Positions 36,473 to 39,612 of a stretch of DNA of 64,000 bases are shown here, one piece after another. The DNA is taken from the NCBI GenBank assembly GCA_944389265.1, contig CALXLS010000002.1:113349-177348 (forward strand), given 5' to 3'. The translations under genes and the position numbers were made by a program. Below the pieces are notes generated by a model. That model ran no database searches, was not told the origin of the DNA, and saw only the letters and a program-made list of their open reading frames with translations. The first letter of the stretch is position 1, and each line of letters opens with the position of its first letter. The stretch is from an uncultured Alphaproteobacteria bacterium (lineage in GTDB: Bacteria; Pseudomonadota; Alphaproteobacteria; Rs-D84).

Positions 36473-36895
36473 ATGAAACTGATAAAAATTTCAATTTTTT
36501 TATTTCCTTTTTTAATGCTTAGCTGGCCGACTATTGCAGGCGTAAATAGCGTAGGTTGTATCGCAACATCTGGTGGGTATCTACCATGTAGATCTTCGTC
36601 TGCAGAAAATAATAACTCTTGGCAGGCAACCTGCGGAACTAATGGGTATTTTGCAGTAAAAGGCGTTGCTATTTGTGGTCAAAATGGAAGTTCCGGTAAC
36701 ACAACTTCATCAATAACTCTTGGTGGTAGTGGCTGCTGGTGCAAAATAGTTTATCCATTTATAACAAAATATTGGATATATACATCACCCACAGGTTCCG
36801 GAAGTTGCGATTCAAACTGTGCATCATGGTGCGCAGATGCCATACGTTCCTCAAATGCATTCAGACAAGCAGTTACCGAAAACTTATCCCTATAA
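36473..36895 (+). CDS. cassette 1 gene A: small Cys-rich secreted protein
   Basis: A 140-residue exported protein (signal peptide about residues 1-23, ending TIAG) with nine cysteines in the mature chain. The pattern is VGC, LPC, WQATCG, GVAICGQ, then CWCKIVYPF, and a C-terminal triplet SC-x3-C-x3-C (SCDSNCASWCADA). All nine are kept in gene A2 at 38391, which has the same length and motifs. The CWC-K/R-I-x-x-P motif plus three later cysteines is also found in the B proteins, so A and B are probably related. No known family recognised. AAGGAG precedes the ATG; first gene of a three-gene run with 21- and 11-base gaps. Confidence 0.82.
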   Translation: MKLIKISIFLFPFLMLSWPTIAGVNSVGCIATSGGYLPCRSSSAENNNSWQATCGTNGYFAVKGVAICGQNGSSGNTTSSITLGGSGCWCKIVYPFITKYWIYTSPTGSGSCDSNCASWCADAIRSSNAFRQAVTENLSL

Positions 36896-36916
36896 AAAAC
36901 AAAGGAACCAAAAAAA

Positions 36917-37345
36917 ATGATAAAAATAATAAAACTTGTTTATGTGCTAAGTTTCTGTATTTTCGCCCAAACATCTTTTGGCATAACAATACAATATTGC
37001 AGTAATATAAAAAACGTAAGTCTTACAAGAGGTAATGCGGTCGGTGCTGTTGATTGGGAATTAAAACAAGATGGCGATACTATGCTAGGGCTTGGTTTTT
37101 GTTCCAGTGATGAAGGCTATCCAAGCACATATTATTCAATGGACACTATAAACATAAGTTACAACTCAAATGATAAATATTGTTGGTGCAGAATTATATC
37201 CCCTGTTCTTTCACGCTGGACACATCCTGCAAATTATAAATTCTCAACTGCAACAGAATGTAGAGAAACTTGTGCCGCACGTTGTGGTTATTCAATGGGG
37301 TACGACACTGGATTTTTTAATGAGATTACCAACTATCTTCAATAA
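36917..37345 (+). CDS. cassette 1 gene B: small Cys-rich secreted protein
   Basis: A 142-residue exported protein (signal peptide ending TSFG) with seven cysteines in the mature chain: QYCSN, LGFCSS, KYCWCRIIS, then EC-x3-C-x3-C (ECRETCAARCG). Gene B2 at 38850 keeps all seven, with the same N-terminal layout (NAVG.VDW) and the same YCWCRII core. The shared CWC motif links B to A. Predicted beta-rich, disulfide-stabilised domain; function unknown. AAAGGA precedes the ATG. Confidence 0.8.
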   Translation: MIKIIKLVYVLSFCIFAQTSFGITIQYCSNIKNVSLTRGNAVGAVDWELKQDGDTMLGLGFCSSDEGYPSTYYSMDTINISYNSNDKYCWCRIISPVLSRWTHPANYKFSTATECRETCAARCGYSMGYDTGFFNEITNYLQ

Positions 37346-37356
37346 TGAGGGAAAAA

Positions 37357-37653
37357 ATGAAAAAAATTTTAATTATATTCAGCGCAATAATATCTATCTA
37401 CCAAGCACACGCTGCTGAACCAGACGCAATTTGTACAGGAACACTAATCACAAGAATCGTTGCAGACAATCTTGTAGAATATGGTCAAACATGTGGTACA
37501 GGCTATGTTTCTGTTGGCGCATTAAAAACCATAGTAAACAACCCAGATTATACAAATTATATCTTTGGCTGGTATATGTATGTTCCAAAAAATTTAGAGT
37601 TTTTTGATAATACTGGTACATGGGTATATAGCGAAACATGCACAAATTTCTAA
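37357..37653 (+). CDS. cassette 1 gene C: small secreted protein
   Basis: A 98-residue exported protein (signal peptide ending QAHAA) with three cysteines at fixed places (AICTG, QTCGTGYVSVG, ETCTNF). The later half contains YMYVPKNLEFFDNTGTWVY. The same order of motifs is found in gene C2 at 39313. I start it at 37357, after GAGGG; an upstream in-frame ATG at 37345 overlaps the B stop codon (ATG inside TAATG) and gives four extra residues. The short gap and overlap indicate cotranscription with A and B. Unknown family. Confidence 0.78.
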   Translation: MKKILIIFSAIISIYQAHAAEPDAICTGTLITRIVADNLVEYGQTCGTGYVSVGALKTIVNNPDYTNYIFGWYMYVPKNLEFFDNTGTWVYSETCTNF

Positions 37654-37679
37654 CTATAAGATAAGGCTCTCCTCAAAAG

Positions 37680-37711
37680 AAAAAATCCTGCAGAGTGCAG
37701 GATTTTTTATT
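37680..37711. terminator. bidirectional terminator between cassette 1 and rpsU
   Basis: AAAAATCCTGCA / TGCAGGATTTTT stem with a GAG loop and A/T runs both ways; it would end the A-B-C transcript from the left and rpsU from the right. Confidence 0.92.
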
Positions 37712-37916
37712 AGAAACCGAAAACCATTCTTTGTTTAGATTGACGTTTCTTTTCATTACGAACGGCTTCTTCTTTCAAACGTTTGCGTTTTGTAGTTGGT
37801 TTTTCATAACGCTGACGTTCTTTCATTTCGCGGTACAGACCTTCTTTCTGAGATTTACGTTTTGCAACGCGCAAAGCCTGTTCTACATTATTATCGCGAA
37901 CAAGAACTTTTACCAT
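37710..37916 (-). CDS. rpsU: 30S ribosomal protein S21
   Basis: A 68-residue basic protein of the small subunit, needed for initiation with Shine-Dalgarno pairing. The start MVKVLVRDNNVEQALRVAKR and the basic C-terminal half (KPTTKRKRLKEEAVRNEKKR) are typical of the alphaproteobacterial form. Its GGGGG-rich site upstream (GGGGGTGAATAACC before the ATG) is a strong ribosome binding site. tRNA-Ala lies upstream on the same strand; both may be transcribed from the promoter at 38306-38334. Confidence 0.95.
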   Translation of the reverse strand: MVKVLVRDNNVEQALRVAKRKSQKEGLYREMKERQRYEKPTTKRKRLKEEAVRNEKKRQSKQRMVFGF

Positions 37917-37965
37917 AGGTTATTCACCCCCTTTTAACGCACTATCTTTTATTTTTACAAACTTT

Positions 37966-38041
37966 TGGTGGAGCTGATCAGACTCGAACTGACGACCCCC
38001 TGCTTGCAAAGCAGGTGCTCTACCAACTGAGCTACAACCCC
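37966..38041 (-). tRNA. tRNA-Ala, anticodon TGC
   Basis: A 76-base tRNA with CCA encoded. Read on the minus strand it begins GGGGTTGTAGCTCAGTTGG; the anticodon stem CTGCT/AGCAG encloses TTGCAAA with TGC at 34-36. The acceptor carries the G3-U70 pair that identifies alanine tRNAs. T arm TTCGAGT is standard. Confidence 0.97.
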
Positions 38042-38390
38042 AAAACTTTGCTTACTTAATAAGTTCAAACTTATAAAGCCCACAAATTTTATACATTTTT
38101 ATTTCCATTGTCAAATTAAAAATAACAAATAACGAAAAACTAATAAAAATTATTCACAATCTATTATAAAACTAAAAACACAATTTGGCATATATTCCTA
38201 TCAAACAAAAAAGCAAAAAAAACGCAAAAAACAAACAGTTTTTGCAAAAAAACACACACTAATTCAAATGAACAATGCGTTTCGTCATAATATTCATTTT
38301 TATGTTATGCGATAATCCGCCACAAGTCAATCATAAAATATGCTGTATTTAATTGTTCATTTCTAACAAACAAAACAACAGGAGGAACAC
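38042..38390. other. 349-base gap without a gene
   Basis: The stretch is very A-rich on the plus strand at 38190-38260 and contains no open frame of note. On the minus strand TTGACT (38325-38330), 17 bases, TAACAT (38302-38307) forms a plausible promoter for tRNA-Ala and rpsU. On the plus strand it must hold the promoter for cassette 2, but no box pair stands out; the A2 ribosome binding site is an exact AGGAGG at 38380-38386. Confidence 0.5.
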
Positions 38391-38834
38391 ATGTTTTTTG
38401 AGAAAAAATACCTTTTTTTCCTTTCCACTTTTTTATTTATATTACCTGCAAAGGCAGATCTTGCTCGACTAGACGGAATCGGTTGCATAAATACAAATGG
38501 CGCATATTATTTACCATGCAGTAGCCCATCTTATACCGCAAGTTCAGACTTTTGGAAAGCAACCTGTGGGGCAACCAATTCCATTCCTATTGAAGGTGTG
38601 GCATATTGCGGCCAAAGCGGTTCTATTGGGAATACCAGCAATTCGCTTACCGCAGGAAATTCTTGCTGGTGTAAAATCGTATATCCGTTTATTTCATCGT
38701 GGGCATACATTGGTGCTCTCGGAAGCGGCGCATGCCCAACAGATTGTGCATCATGGTGTGCAACAGCGATGACAAGTACGGATAGCAGTTATGTAAGTTT
38801 TAAAACCGCAATTTCCAATACACTAAGCATATAA
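38391..38834 (+). CDS. cassette 2 gene A: small Cys-rich secreted protein
   Basis: A 147-residue exported protein, counterpart of the gene at 36473. The signal peptide ends PAKA. The nine mature-chain cysteines align one to one with A1: GIGC, LPC, WKATCG, GVAYCGQ, SCWCKIVYPF, AC-x3-C-x3-C (ACPTDCASWCATA). Between them the residues have diverged clearly, which points to an old duplication or independent gain and not to a recent copy. AGGAGG precedes the ATG. Followed by B2 after 15 bases. Confidence 0.83.
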   Translation: MFFEKKYLFFLSTFLFILPAKADLARLDGIGCINTNGAYYLPCSSPSYTASSDFWKATCGATNSIPIEGVAYCGQSGSIGNTSNSLTAGNSCWCKIVYPFISSWAYIGALGSGACPTDCASWCATAMTSTDSSYVSFKTAISNTLSI

Positions 38835-38849
38835 AAGGAGAAAAAAGCA

Positions 38850-39299
38850 ATGAACCCAATCAAAATCTTTTTATATCTGGCATCTTTCACAATATTTATA
38901 ACATCTGCCAATGCATTGACTTTAAAAATGTGCAGTAATTATACCAGCCAAAGAAGTTCAAGCGGCTATAACGCGGTTGGTGATGTAGACTGGCAAGTAA
39001 TAGACTCTGTATCGGGCAAATATATAAAAGGACTTGGTATATGTAGTTCATCTTCCGGCAGATACGGTACTAGCCCGGCCTCTTATGCTAATTTGATTAC
39101 TTTCAGTTCAACAACTTCATCTAATAAATATTGTTGGTGCAGAATTATATATCCATTTGTATCCGACTATGTAAGATCAGACACAGACTATTCAACTTCC
39201 GATGCATGCATAGACGGCTGTGCGCAACGTTGTTCGTATATTGTTGCAATGGGTTCAAATGCAGAATATGTCAACATGATGGTAAATCACAGCAAATAA
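38850..39299 (+). CDS. cassette 2 gene B: small Cys-rich secreted protein
   Basis: A 149-residue exported protein, counterpart of the gene at 36917. The signal peptide ends SANA. It keeps the seven-cysteine pattern (KMCSN, LGICSS, KYCWCRIIYPF, AC-x3-C-x3-C in ACIDGCAQRCS) and the NAVGDVDWQV segment near the mature N-terminus. AAAGGAG precedes the ATG. It shares YPF after the CWC core with the A proteins, supporting a common ancestor of A and B. Confidence 0.82.
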   Translation: MNPIKIFLYLASFTIFITSANALTLKMCSNYTSQRSSSGYNAVGDVDWQVIDSVSGKYIKGLGICSSSSGRYGTSPASYANLITFSSTTSSNKYCWCRIIYPFVSDYVRSDTDYSTSDACIDGCAQRCSYIVAMGSNAEYVNMMVNHSK

Positions 39300-39312
39300 A
39301 AGGGATAAACAA

Positions 39313-39612
39313 ATGAAAAAAATATTATTCATTATATCTATTTTACTATCATCAAACATTTACGCAGCCGAAATCAATGCACCATGTGACGGTAAATTAT
39401 ATACAAGGACACCCGTTGATATAATAGTAAATGATGCAAACAGTTGCCCCTATGGTTATATTTCTGTTGGTTCATTACCACAGGGTGTCCTAGGTTCTGG
39501 TTCTGAATTTGCGCAAAAGTTATTCTATTACATGTACGTCCCAAAAGGCATGGAATTTGAAGATACCACAGGAACCTGGGAATACGATGAGGCTTGTACA
39601 ACTTTTAACTAA
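39313..39612 (+). CDS. cassette 2 gene C: small secreted protein
   Basis: A 99-residue exported protein, counterpart of the gene at 37357. The signal peptide ends NIYAA. Three cysteines and the motif order (APCDGKLYTR, GYISVGSLP, YYMYVPKGMEFEDTTGTWEY, EACTTF) match C1, and this is the best conserved of the three pairs by eye. AAAGGGA precedes the ATG, 13 bases after B2. No terminator hairpin follows clearly before the ABC exporter promoter. Confidence 0.8.
   Translation: MKKILFIISILLSSNIYAAEINAPCDGKLYTRTPVDIIVNDANSCPYGYISVGSLPQGVLGSGSEFAQKLFYYMYVPKGMEFEDTTGTWEYDEACTTFN

What the first reader, a model, noticed from the sequence alone, without database searches (positions are those of the whole stretch)
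36473..39612. Duplicated three-gene cassette (A-B-C) of small Cys-rich secreted proteins
Two runs of three genes with the same order, similar lengths and tight spacing encode exported proteins with conserved cysteines: A has 9, B has 7, C has 3, and each aligns one to one between cassettes. A and B share a CWC-K/R-I-x-x-P core followed by three C-terminal cysteines, so they probably arose from each other. C shares the GY-x-SVG and YMYVP blocks between copies. Between the cassettes lie rpsU and tRNA-Ala on the other strand. Kept order, kept cysteines and strong divergence elsewhere suggest a functional unit whose parts work together, for instance an extracellular or periplasmic assembly, an adhesin, or a toxin and carrier set. 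I do not recognise any family.
Basis: partly seen in the sequence, partly recalled or inferred. Interest (0 to 1): 0.85.

Follow-up and report, generated by a model that had tools for sequence, protein, structure and literature searches.

The report
Repeated cassettes of secreted cysteine-rich proteins
The small genome of this gut bacterium carries at least six copies of a two- or three-gene cassette for cysteine-rich proteins with apparent export signals that match no family in the libraries searched, and the cassettes likely act as a variable set of paired surface-binding proteins.

Summary
In detail: two A-B-C gene runs lie at 36473-37653 and 38391-39612, with rpsU and tRNA-Ala on the other strand between them. 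They are two of at least six cassettes in this 0.93-Mb genome, a Candidatus Enterousia relative (GTDB order Rs-D84). A and B are one family ('AB'); the basic unit is AB followed by C, the three-gene form AB-AB-C. AB is found in 145 of 201 genomes of the order (144 in one family) and 3 of 385 sampled across the class, all in this genus; copies run from 1 to at least 28. AB gives a confident model (pLDDT 88) with no significant fold match, and recurs at or near the end of longer exported proteins. Natural C-AB fusions and odd cysteine numbers (AB 141 of 167, C 89 of 91) suggest a disulfide-linked pair; this is inferred. Best reading: a variable repertoire of secreted binding proteins. Toxin-plus-carrier is unsupported. 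Three of the other four cassettes of the genome, but not the two in the window, follow a structured leader RNA, resembling sRNA-Xcc1 (RF02221) below Rfam's threshold, which also precedes other secreted-protein genes.

The parts
36473..36895 (+). A1: AB-family protein, 140 aa, presumed Sec signal peptide, 9 Cys
   Evidence: AB profile hit
36917..37345 (+). B1: AB-family protein, 142 aa, 7 Cys in the mature part
37357..37653 (+). C1: small C protein with signal-like start, 3 Cys (ORF opens at 37345; the second ATG is the likelier start)
38391..38834 (+). A2: AB-family protein, 147 aa, 9 Cys; AlphaFold2 model of the mature part pLDDT 88
38850..39299 (+). B2: AB-family protein, 149 aa, 7 Cys
39313..39612 (+). 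C2: small C protein with signal-like start, 99 aa, 3 Cys
38122..39664 (.). segment holding cassette 2 that has no counterpart at the same place in the close relative G020, whose flanks are contiguous but for a short AT-rich stretch
   Evidence: blastn; junction letters
37710..38041 (-). rpsU (37710-37916) and tRNA-Ala (37966-38041): neighbours, not part of the cassettes
55863..56690 (-). DsbA-like thiol oxidase with a CPYC motif, a possible maker of disulfides in exported proteins (not linked to the cassettes)
   Evidence: PF01323 over its cut-off, in two pieces; ORF

Best explanation
The two A-B-C runs are members of a dispersed, fast-changing cassette family that likely encodes secreted, disulfide-braced proteins which pair with each other and bind partners at the cell surface. 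Shown: the unit is one or two AB genes followed by C; at least six cassettes in this genome; both proteins are cysteine-rich behind a signal-peptide-like N terminus (by eye); AB also lies at or near the end of longer proteins with such starts; copy number and presence vary between species. Inferred: AB is the variable binding head; C, whose end motif recurs at the C-terminal end of other exported proteins of the genus, is the constant partner that anchors or presents it; the odd cysteine left in each joins them. Not shown: export, display, pairing, binding or any ligand.
For: Inventory of own genome: 6 cassettes. Order AB then C: clusters AB-C 60, AB-AB-C 23, AB-(C-AB fusion) 4, AB-AB-C-AB 1, of 138. 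Natural C-AB single chains L102:3698-4339 and L051:777-1508. Cysteine number odd in AB 141 of 167 and in C 89 of 91; cysteine columns 2 and 3 of AB kept or lost together in 154 of 167 (p 4e-32), columns 3 and 4 of C in 90 of 91 (p 3e-5) (related sequences counted as if independent). Columns conserved in AB at 90% or more are Cys, Trp, Gly, Pro and one Ser, with no charged or His residue, as for a scaffold rather than an enzyme. AB at or near the end of longer proteins. End motif of C on other Cys-rich proteins. dN/dS of 12 cassette genes 0.16-0.95 against 0-0.14 in 16 flanking genes, G000 versus G020. Cassette 2 absent from G020. Partner-dependent lifestyle proposed for Rs-D84 (PMC12306168, whole text). 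DsbA-like gene present.
Against: No fold, family or motif ties AB or C to adhesion. The predicted C-AB fusion has a low-confidence C half (block means 42-72, pTM 0.52), so no interface was seen. Cysteine parity is broken in 26 of 167 AB; other AB cysteine columns are also lost together at p under 1e-3 (10 column pairs listed), so only the 2-3 bond is clear. Fusion L102 has an even total (14) but L051 an odd one (15 in the whole ORF). In three-gene cassettes A, B and C are each odd, so one pairing cannot use all. 22 AB genes stand without a detected C although neither long nor at a locus edge, some because identical C copies were removed before counting. 56 of 201 genomes of the order lack AB at E 1e-5, so it is dispensable.
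Confidence: 0.45

Rival explanations
1. The proteins are secreted effectors or toxins released against neighbouring microbes or a host cell, with C as carrier, chaperone or immunity partner.
For: Small, signal-bearing, cysteine-rich, multicopy, faster-evolving than neighbours, lineage-restricted. A TrbI/VirB10 homologue is present, so a type IV secretion system may exist.
Against: No charged or His column conserved at 90%. C itself carries a signal-like N terminus and 3 or 5 cysteines, unlike a cytoplasmic immunity protein. AB also lies at or near the end of long exported-looking proteins. No toxin family was hit in Pfam, NCBIfam or PHROGs; PADLOC was not run.
Confidence: 0.2
2. The proteins are structural subunits of an extracellular or envelope assembly such as a fibre, pilus tip or sheath.
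For: Tandem AB-AB-C units, natural fusions and AB at the end of 'SGSYNDLSNKPT' repeat proteins, which resemble phage fibre repeats (recalled); phrog_17509, of unknown function, matched these repeats in L162 at E 8.9e-6. Odd cysteine numbers fit cross-links.
Against: A structural part would be expected in every species; 56 of 201 genomes of the order have none at E 1e-5 and copies range up to at least 28.
Confidence: 0.2
3. The cassettes are gene families kept by duplication and recombination with little function, as drifting secretome debris.
For: High divergence, presence/absence, some AB matches with stop codons inside, dS near zero in some cassettes beside higher flanks, pointing to exchange.
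Against: All 12 computable dN/dS values are below 1; cysteines, spacing and order are kept across very divergent copies.
Confidence: 0.08

Closest known systems
Multicopy variable surface-protein repertoires of reduced-genome, host-associated bacteria (for example the variable lipoproteins of mycoplasmas; recalled, not tested)
   Same: Many dispersed, divergent paralogues of one exported-looking protein in a genome under 1 Mb, with presence/absence between relatives
   Different: Here an AB+C gene pair or trio, cysteine-rich, no family match for the domain; no switching mechanism shown
Small secreted cysteine-rich proteins of fungi and venoms (search listing only)
   Same: Size, signal peptide, many conserved cysteines
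   Different: No sequence relation found in the libraries used; paired with a second protein; bacterial
sRNA-Xcc1 (RF02221), for the leader RNA only
   Same: Full-length model match inside the element on its strand in 8 of 15 distant loci; the two alignments seen show the same closing helix and inner hairpins; in Xanthomonas integrons it lies upstream of symE (PMC12444791, passages)
   Different: Scores 25-37 bits, below the gathering score of 53; our element has an added 5' half with further long-range pairing; described in print as an 88-nt sRNA (PMC2996969, passages)

Membership tests
Any Pfam-A, NCBIfam or PHROGs family (for A, B, C) | score at or over the curated cut-off, or E at or under 1e-3 for PHROGs | tested here: not met
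   six window proteins: Pfam best E 0.018, 16 bits against a cut-off of 27; NCBIfam none; PHROGs best E 0.016; 100 AB domains against Pfam: three families with one member each at E 0.0038-0.007
A known protein fold (for AB) | significant structural match to a solved structure | tested here: inconclusive
Toxin plus immunity or carrier | toxic activity neutralised or carried by the partner | not testable with these tools
   needs a bench assay; no sequence sign of it
Disulfide-linked heterodimer | interchain disulfide between AB and C | not testable with these tools
   odd cysteine numbers on both sides and natural fusions are indirect
sRNA-Xcc1, RF02221 (leader RNA) | Rfam gathering score of 53 bits | tested here: not met
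   best 37.2 bits (L281); no RF02221 match up to E 1 in L009, L010, L028, L102, L108
sRNA-Xcc1, RF02221 (leader RNA) | its consensus layout: closing helix, inner hairpins, tail after the helix | tested here: inconclusive
   full model 1-87 placed inside the element in 8 of 15 distant loci, but only two alignments were looked at and all scores are under the threshold
Cis-acting transcription attenuator (leader RNA) | conserved covarying fold ending in an intrinsic terminator just before the gene | tested here: met
Cis-acting transcription attenuator (leader RNA) | readthrough that changes with a signal | not testable with these tools
   needs transcription assays

The most novel reading that the evidence does not exclude
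Enterousia displays a genome-wide repertoire of disulfide-linked AB-C heterodimers of a new fold, in which the C module is the common anchor of the secretome and AB the variable head, and many copies, though not the two in this window, are switched by a pseudoknotted two-state leader RNA of the sRNA-Xcc1 kind, making that 'sRNA' a cis-acting regulator of surface genes.
Probability: 0.25. Interest if true: 0.85.

Novelty: new variant of a known kind. Interest (0 to 1): 0.62.

Why it matters
Enterousia and its order are uncultured lineages with genomes around 1 Mb or less, proposed to depend on a partner cell whose contact is unknown (PMC12306168, whole text). A protein family with at least 28 copies in some of these genomes, evolving faster than its neighbours and sitting with a second protein, is a concrete lead on that contact, and can be made and tested in laboratory strains. 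The leader RNA would connect an experimentally seen but unexplained sRNA to cis control of exported proteins in several alphaproteobacterial families.

Tried and rejected
Structure of the natural C-AB fusion L102: C half modelled poorly, no interface read; a first mixed alignment (A8) stacked AB on C and was dropped after a check; a 62-row subset was picked because MAFFT placed both parts correctly in a trial and was used. Fold searches gave nothing usable, which does not show a new fold. The protein database search gave only 13 hits; its word seeding suits this family badly. Simple promoter and terminator scans around the cassettes were no better than shuffles. Direct repeats at the ends of the cassette-2 segment: only AT-rich, imperfect matches, so no mobile-element mechanism is claimed, and gain versus loss is undecided. 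Weak own-genome AB hits at C1:247 kb and C2:53 kb overlap unrelated large ORFs. I first took the leader RNA to be without any known relative (no match on it) and dropped that when distant copies matched sRNA-Xcc1. The alternative pairing of the middle strand with the 3' strand, as I wrote it, shows no covariation beyond shuffles; one slid version had more both-side changes (18 cells against 2), as the alignment has a gap there; pair 171-237 alone changes on both sides (G-C 41, U-A 10). So the two-state switch stays a hypothesis. Literature: 'Enterousia' or 'Rs-D84' occur in 17 held papers (listing); one was read whole. Searches showed, in the 5 and 8 rows listed, no paper that holds 'Enterousia'.
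Full report
OBSERVATION. The six ORFs, their order, spacing and cysteines are as described. A1-A2, B1-B2 and C1-C2 match at E 1.7e-33, 1.3e-21 and 6.3e-21. On a tree of 106 AB domains, A1 groups with A2 (100/94) and B1 with B2 (96/89), so the three-gene unit was copied as a whole or acquired twice; 53 of 103 inner branches are open.

SCALE. The window is part of a 934,759-base, 97.8% complete genome. Four more cassettes lie elsewhere in it: L009:3560-4830, L010:3478-4622 and L028:9529-10758 (three genes each; K3, K4, K5) and L028:4196-4932 (two genes; K6). 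Two longer proteins in L029 carry a C-like end. The named-genome scan gave 78 confirmed relatives of 85 candidate stretches; the 75 loci listed are all Alphaproteobacteria or 'proteobacterium' records.

DISTRIBUTION. With an AB profile, 110 of 142 genomes sampled in the family match at E 1e-3, from 1 to at least 28 copies (at most 28 candidates were scored per genome). In the order 145 of 201 match at E 1e-5: 144 in the own family and one weak hit in another. In the class 3 of 385 sampled genomes match, all in the own genus.

UNIT. In the loci at hand (fetched because of AB or near it, duplicates removed) 138 clusters were formed: AB-C 60, AB alone 38, AB-AB-C 23, C alone 7, AB-(C-AB) 4, AB-AB-AB 2, and 1 each of C-AB-AB, AB-AB, AB-AB-C-AB and a fusion alone. 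Of the 38 AB alone, 14 are long proteins, 2 lie near a locus edge and 22 stay unexplained, some because identical C copies had been removed. Neighbours in AB-C and AB-AB-C runs are a median 10.5 nt apart, 105 of 106 at most 30 nt. So C follows AB as a rule, and B of the finding is an optional second AB; a very divergent upstream AB could have been missed.

ARCHITECTURES. AB also lies at or near the end of longer proteins with signal-like starts: with SGSYNDLSNKPT-type repeats in horse-derived MAGs including E. scatequi, behind other cysteine-rich stretches, and twice in one chain (L160). Two clear natural fusions join C to AB in that order (L102, L051); two more (L054, L056) have a C-like start, another stretch and AB. 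The end motif of C (roughly C-[YF]-[LI]...D-x-x-G-x-[YFW]...C) recurs at the end of other cysteine-rich proteins: of 40 reading frames examined downstream of leader RNAs, 9 reach E 1e-4 against the C profile and 3 more E 0.01; the profile includes a signal peptide, which adds to some scores.

CYSTEINES. AB domains hold an odd number in 141 of 167, C in 89 of 91. AB columns 2 and 3 are kept or lost together in 154 of 167 (p 4e-32), C columns 3 and 4 in 90 of 91 (p 3e-5), as disulfide partners would be; nine other AB column pairs also reach p under 1e-3, and related sequences were counted as independent. C1 and C2 of the window are such losses. One leftover cysteine in each partner is what an interchain bond needs; this is inference, and the cases against it are in the Against line.

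STRUCTURE. The mature A2 model has mean pLDDT 88 and pTM 0.82: five strands, then two helices. No significant match was found by fold or by sequence to solved structures. Conservation at 90% or more sits in cysteines, three tryptophans, a glycine, a proline and a serine; the CWC strand is the most conserved element, and the first strand, its following loop and the stretch before the helices are the most variable.

EVOLUTION. Against G020 (matched stretches 90-95% identical DNA), 12 cassette genes have dN/dS 0.16-0.95 and 16 flanking genes 0-0.14; two more cassette genes had dS 0 (simple Nei-Gojobori counts written here; fabG, the 0.14, may not be a true orthologue). In K3 the dS is 0-0.09 beside flanks of 0.14-0.63, in K6 0-0.02 beside leuS at 0.47, which suggests recent exchange; K1 shows no such drop (0.51-0.73). 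Cassette 2 (38122-39664) is missing at the same place in G020.

MECHANISM. A cysteine-rich scaffold without a conserved charged column, variable, multicopy, lineage-bound, used near the end of longer proteins and paired with a module common to the secretome, fits a repertoire of surface recognition proteins in an organism thought to depend on partner cells (PMC12306168, whole text). Export, pairing and binding are not shown. Signal peptides were judged by eye or by a crude rule.

LEADER RNA (outside the window). Upstream regions of cassettes share a conserved non-coding element of about 190 nt ending in an intrinsic terminator: 88 of 108 upstreams fell in one blastn component at E 1e-4, orthologues included. 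In own K3, K4 and K6 about 30-40 nt separate it from the first AB start codon (counted by eye). In 51 rows 86.2% of 2,535 pair cells are standard pairs (shuffled 72.2), 35 of 51 pairs have changes on both sides, and the covariation score is 0.424 against 0.174 shuffled and at most 0.100 when slid. The structure was chosen by me from these sequences, and helices 4-6 pair poorly (41-64%). A covariance model finds 8-34 copies at E 0.01 in 10 of 10 Enterousia genomes, five of them without an AB hit (23 in the own genome); it matches 91 of 96 sampled genomes of the order at E 1e-6 and 14 of 142 of the class at E 1e-4, two of these being Enterousia. It finds none in the window (best 6.3 bits): the two cassettes of this finding lack it, and none was found at K5; own K3, K4 (two copies), K6 and a C-like gene in L029 have it. 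Of 40 copies examined in G000, G024, G036 and G035, chosen outside the cassettes known then, 19 precede a signal-bearing protein with at least 9 cysteines (one of them an AB gene), 9 a small, mostly HTH-like protein (my reading), 3 another gene, and 9 were unresolved; 8 weaker own-genome copies were not looked at. In distant genomes it precedes pilin-like, outer-membrane and lipoprotein-like genes (names by eye). Its 3' half matches sRNA-Xcc1 below threshold in 8 of 15 distant loci, always inside the element on its strand.

Noticed in passing
L009:4818-5007 (-), L010:3042-3235 and 3258-3453 (+), L028:3960-4159 (+), L029:4972-5192 (-); none in the window: A covarying, terminator-ended leader RNA of about 190 nt precedes cassettes K3, K4 (two tandem copies), K6 and a C-like gene, and occurs 8-34 times in each of 10 Enterousia genomes; of 40 copies examined 19 precede secreted cysteine-rich and 9 small, mostly HTH-like genes.
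   Followed up: yes
L269-L283 (G289, G247, G272, G219, G268, G231): The same RNA is found in other alphaproteobacterial families, often before envelope-type genes, and its 3' half resembles sRNA-Xcc1 (RF02221) below the gathering score.
   Followed up: partly
L229, L238, L239, L243, L247, L253, L256, L257, L259: Small, mostly HTH-like proteins directly downstream of leader copies, some alike between species; possible regulators of the same set.
   Followed up: no
L158-L171, L170, L175, L182, L183: AB at or near the end of long proteins of several architectures, several copies in horse-derived Enterousia.
   Followed up: partly
window 41577-43439 (+): 620-aa protein next to the ABC transporter with three similar repeats (IDWSK-xKD-xxLR type).
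   Followed up: no
L009/L099, L028/L098: Cassettes K3 and K6 have low synonymous divergence between G000 and G020 (0-0.09) beside flanks at 0.14-0.63, a sign of exchange between lineages.
   Followed up: partly
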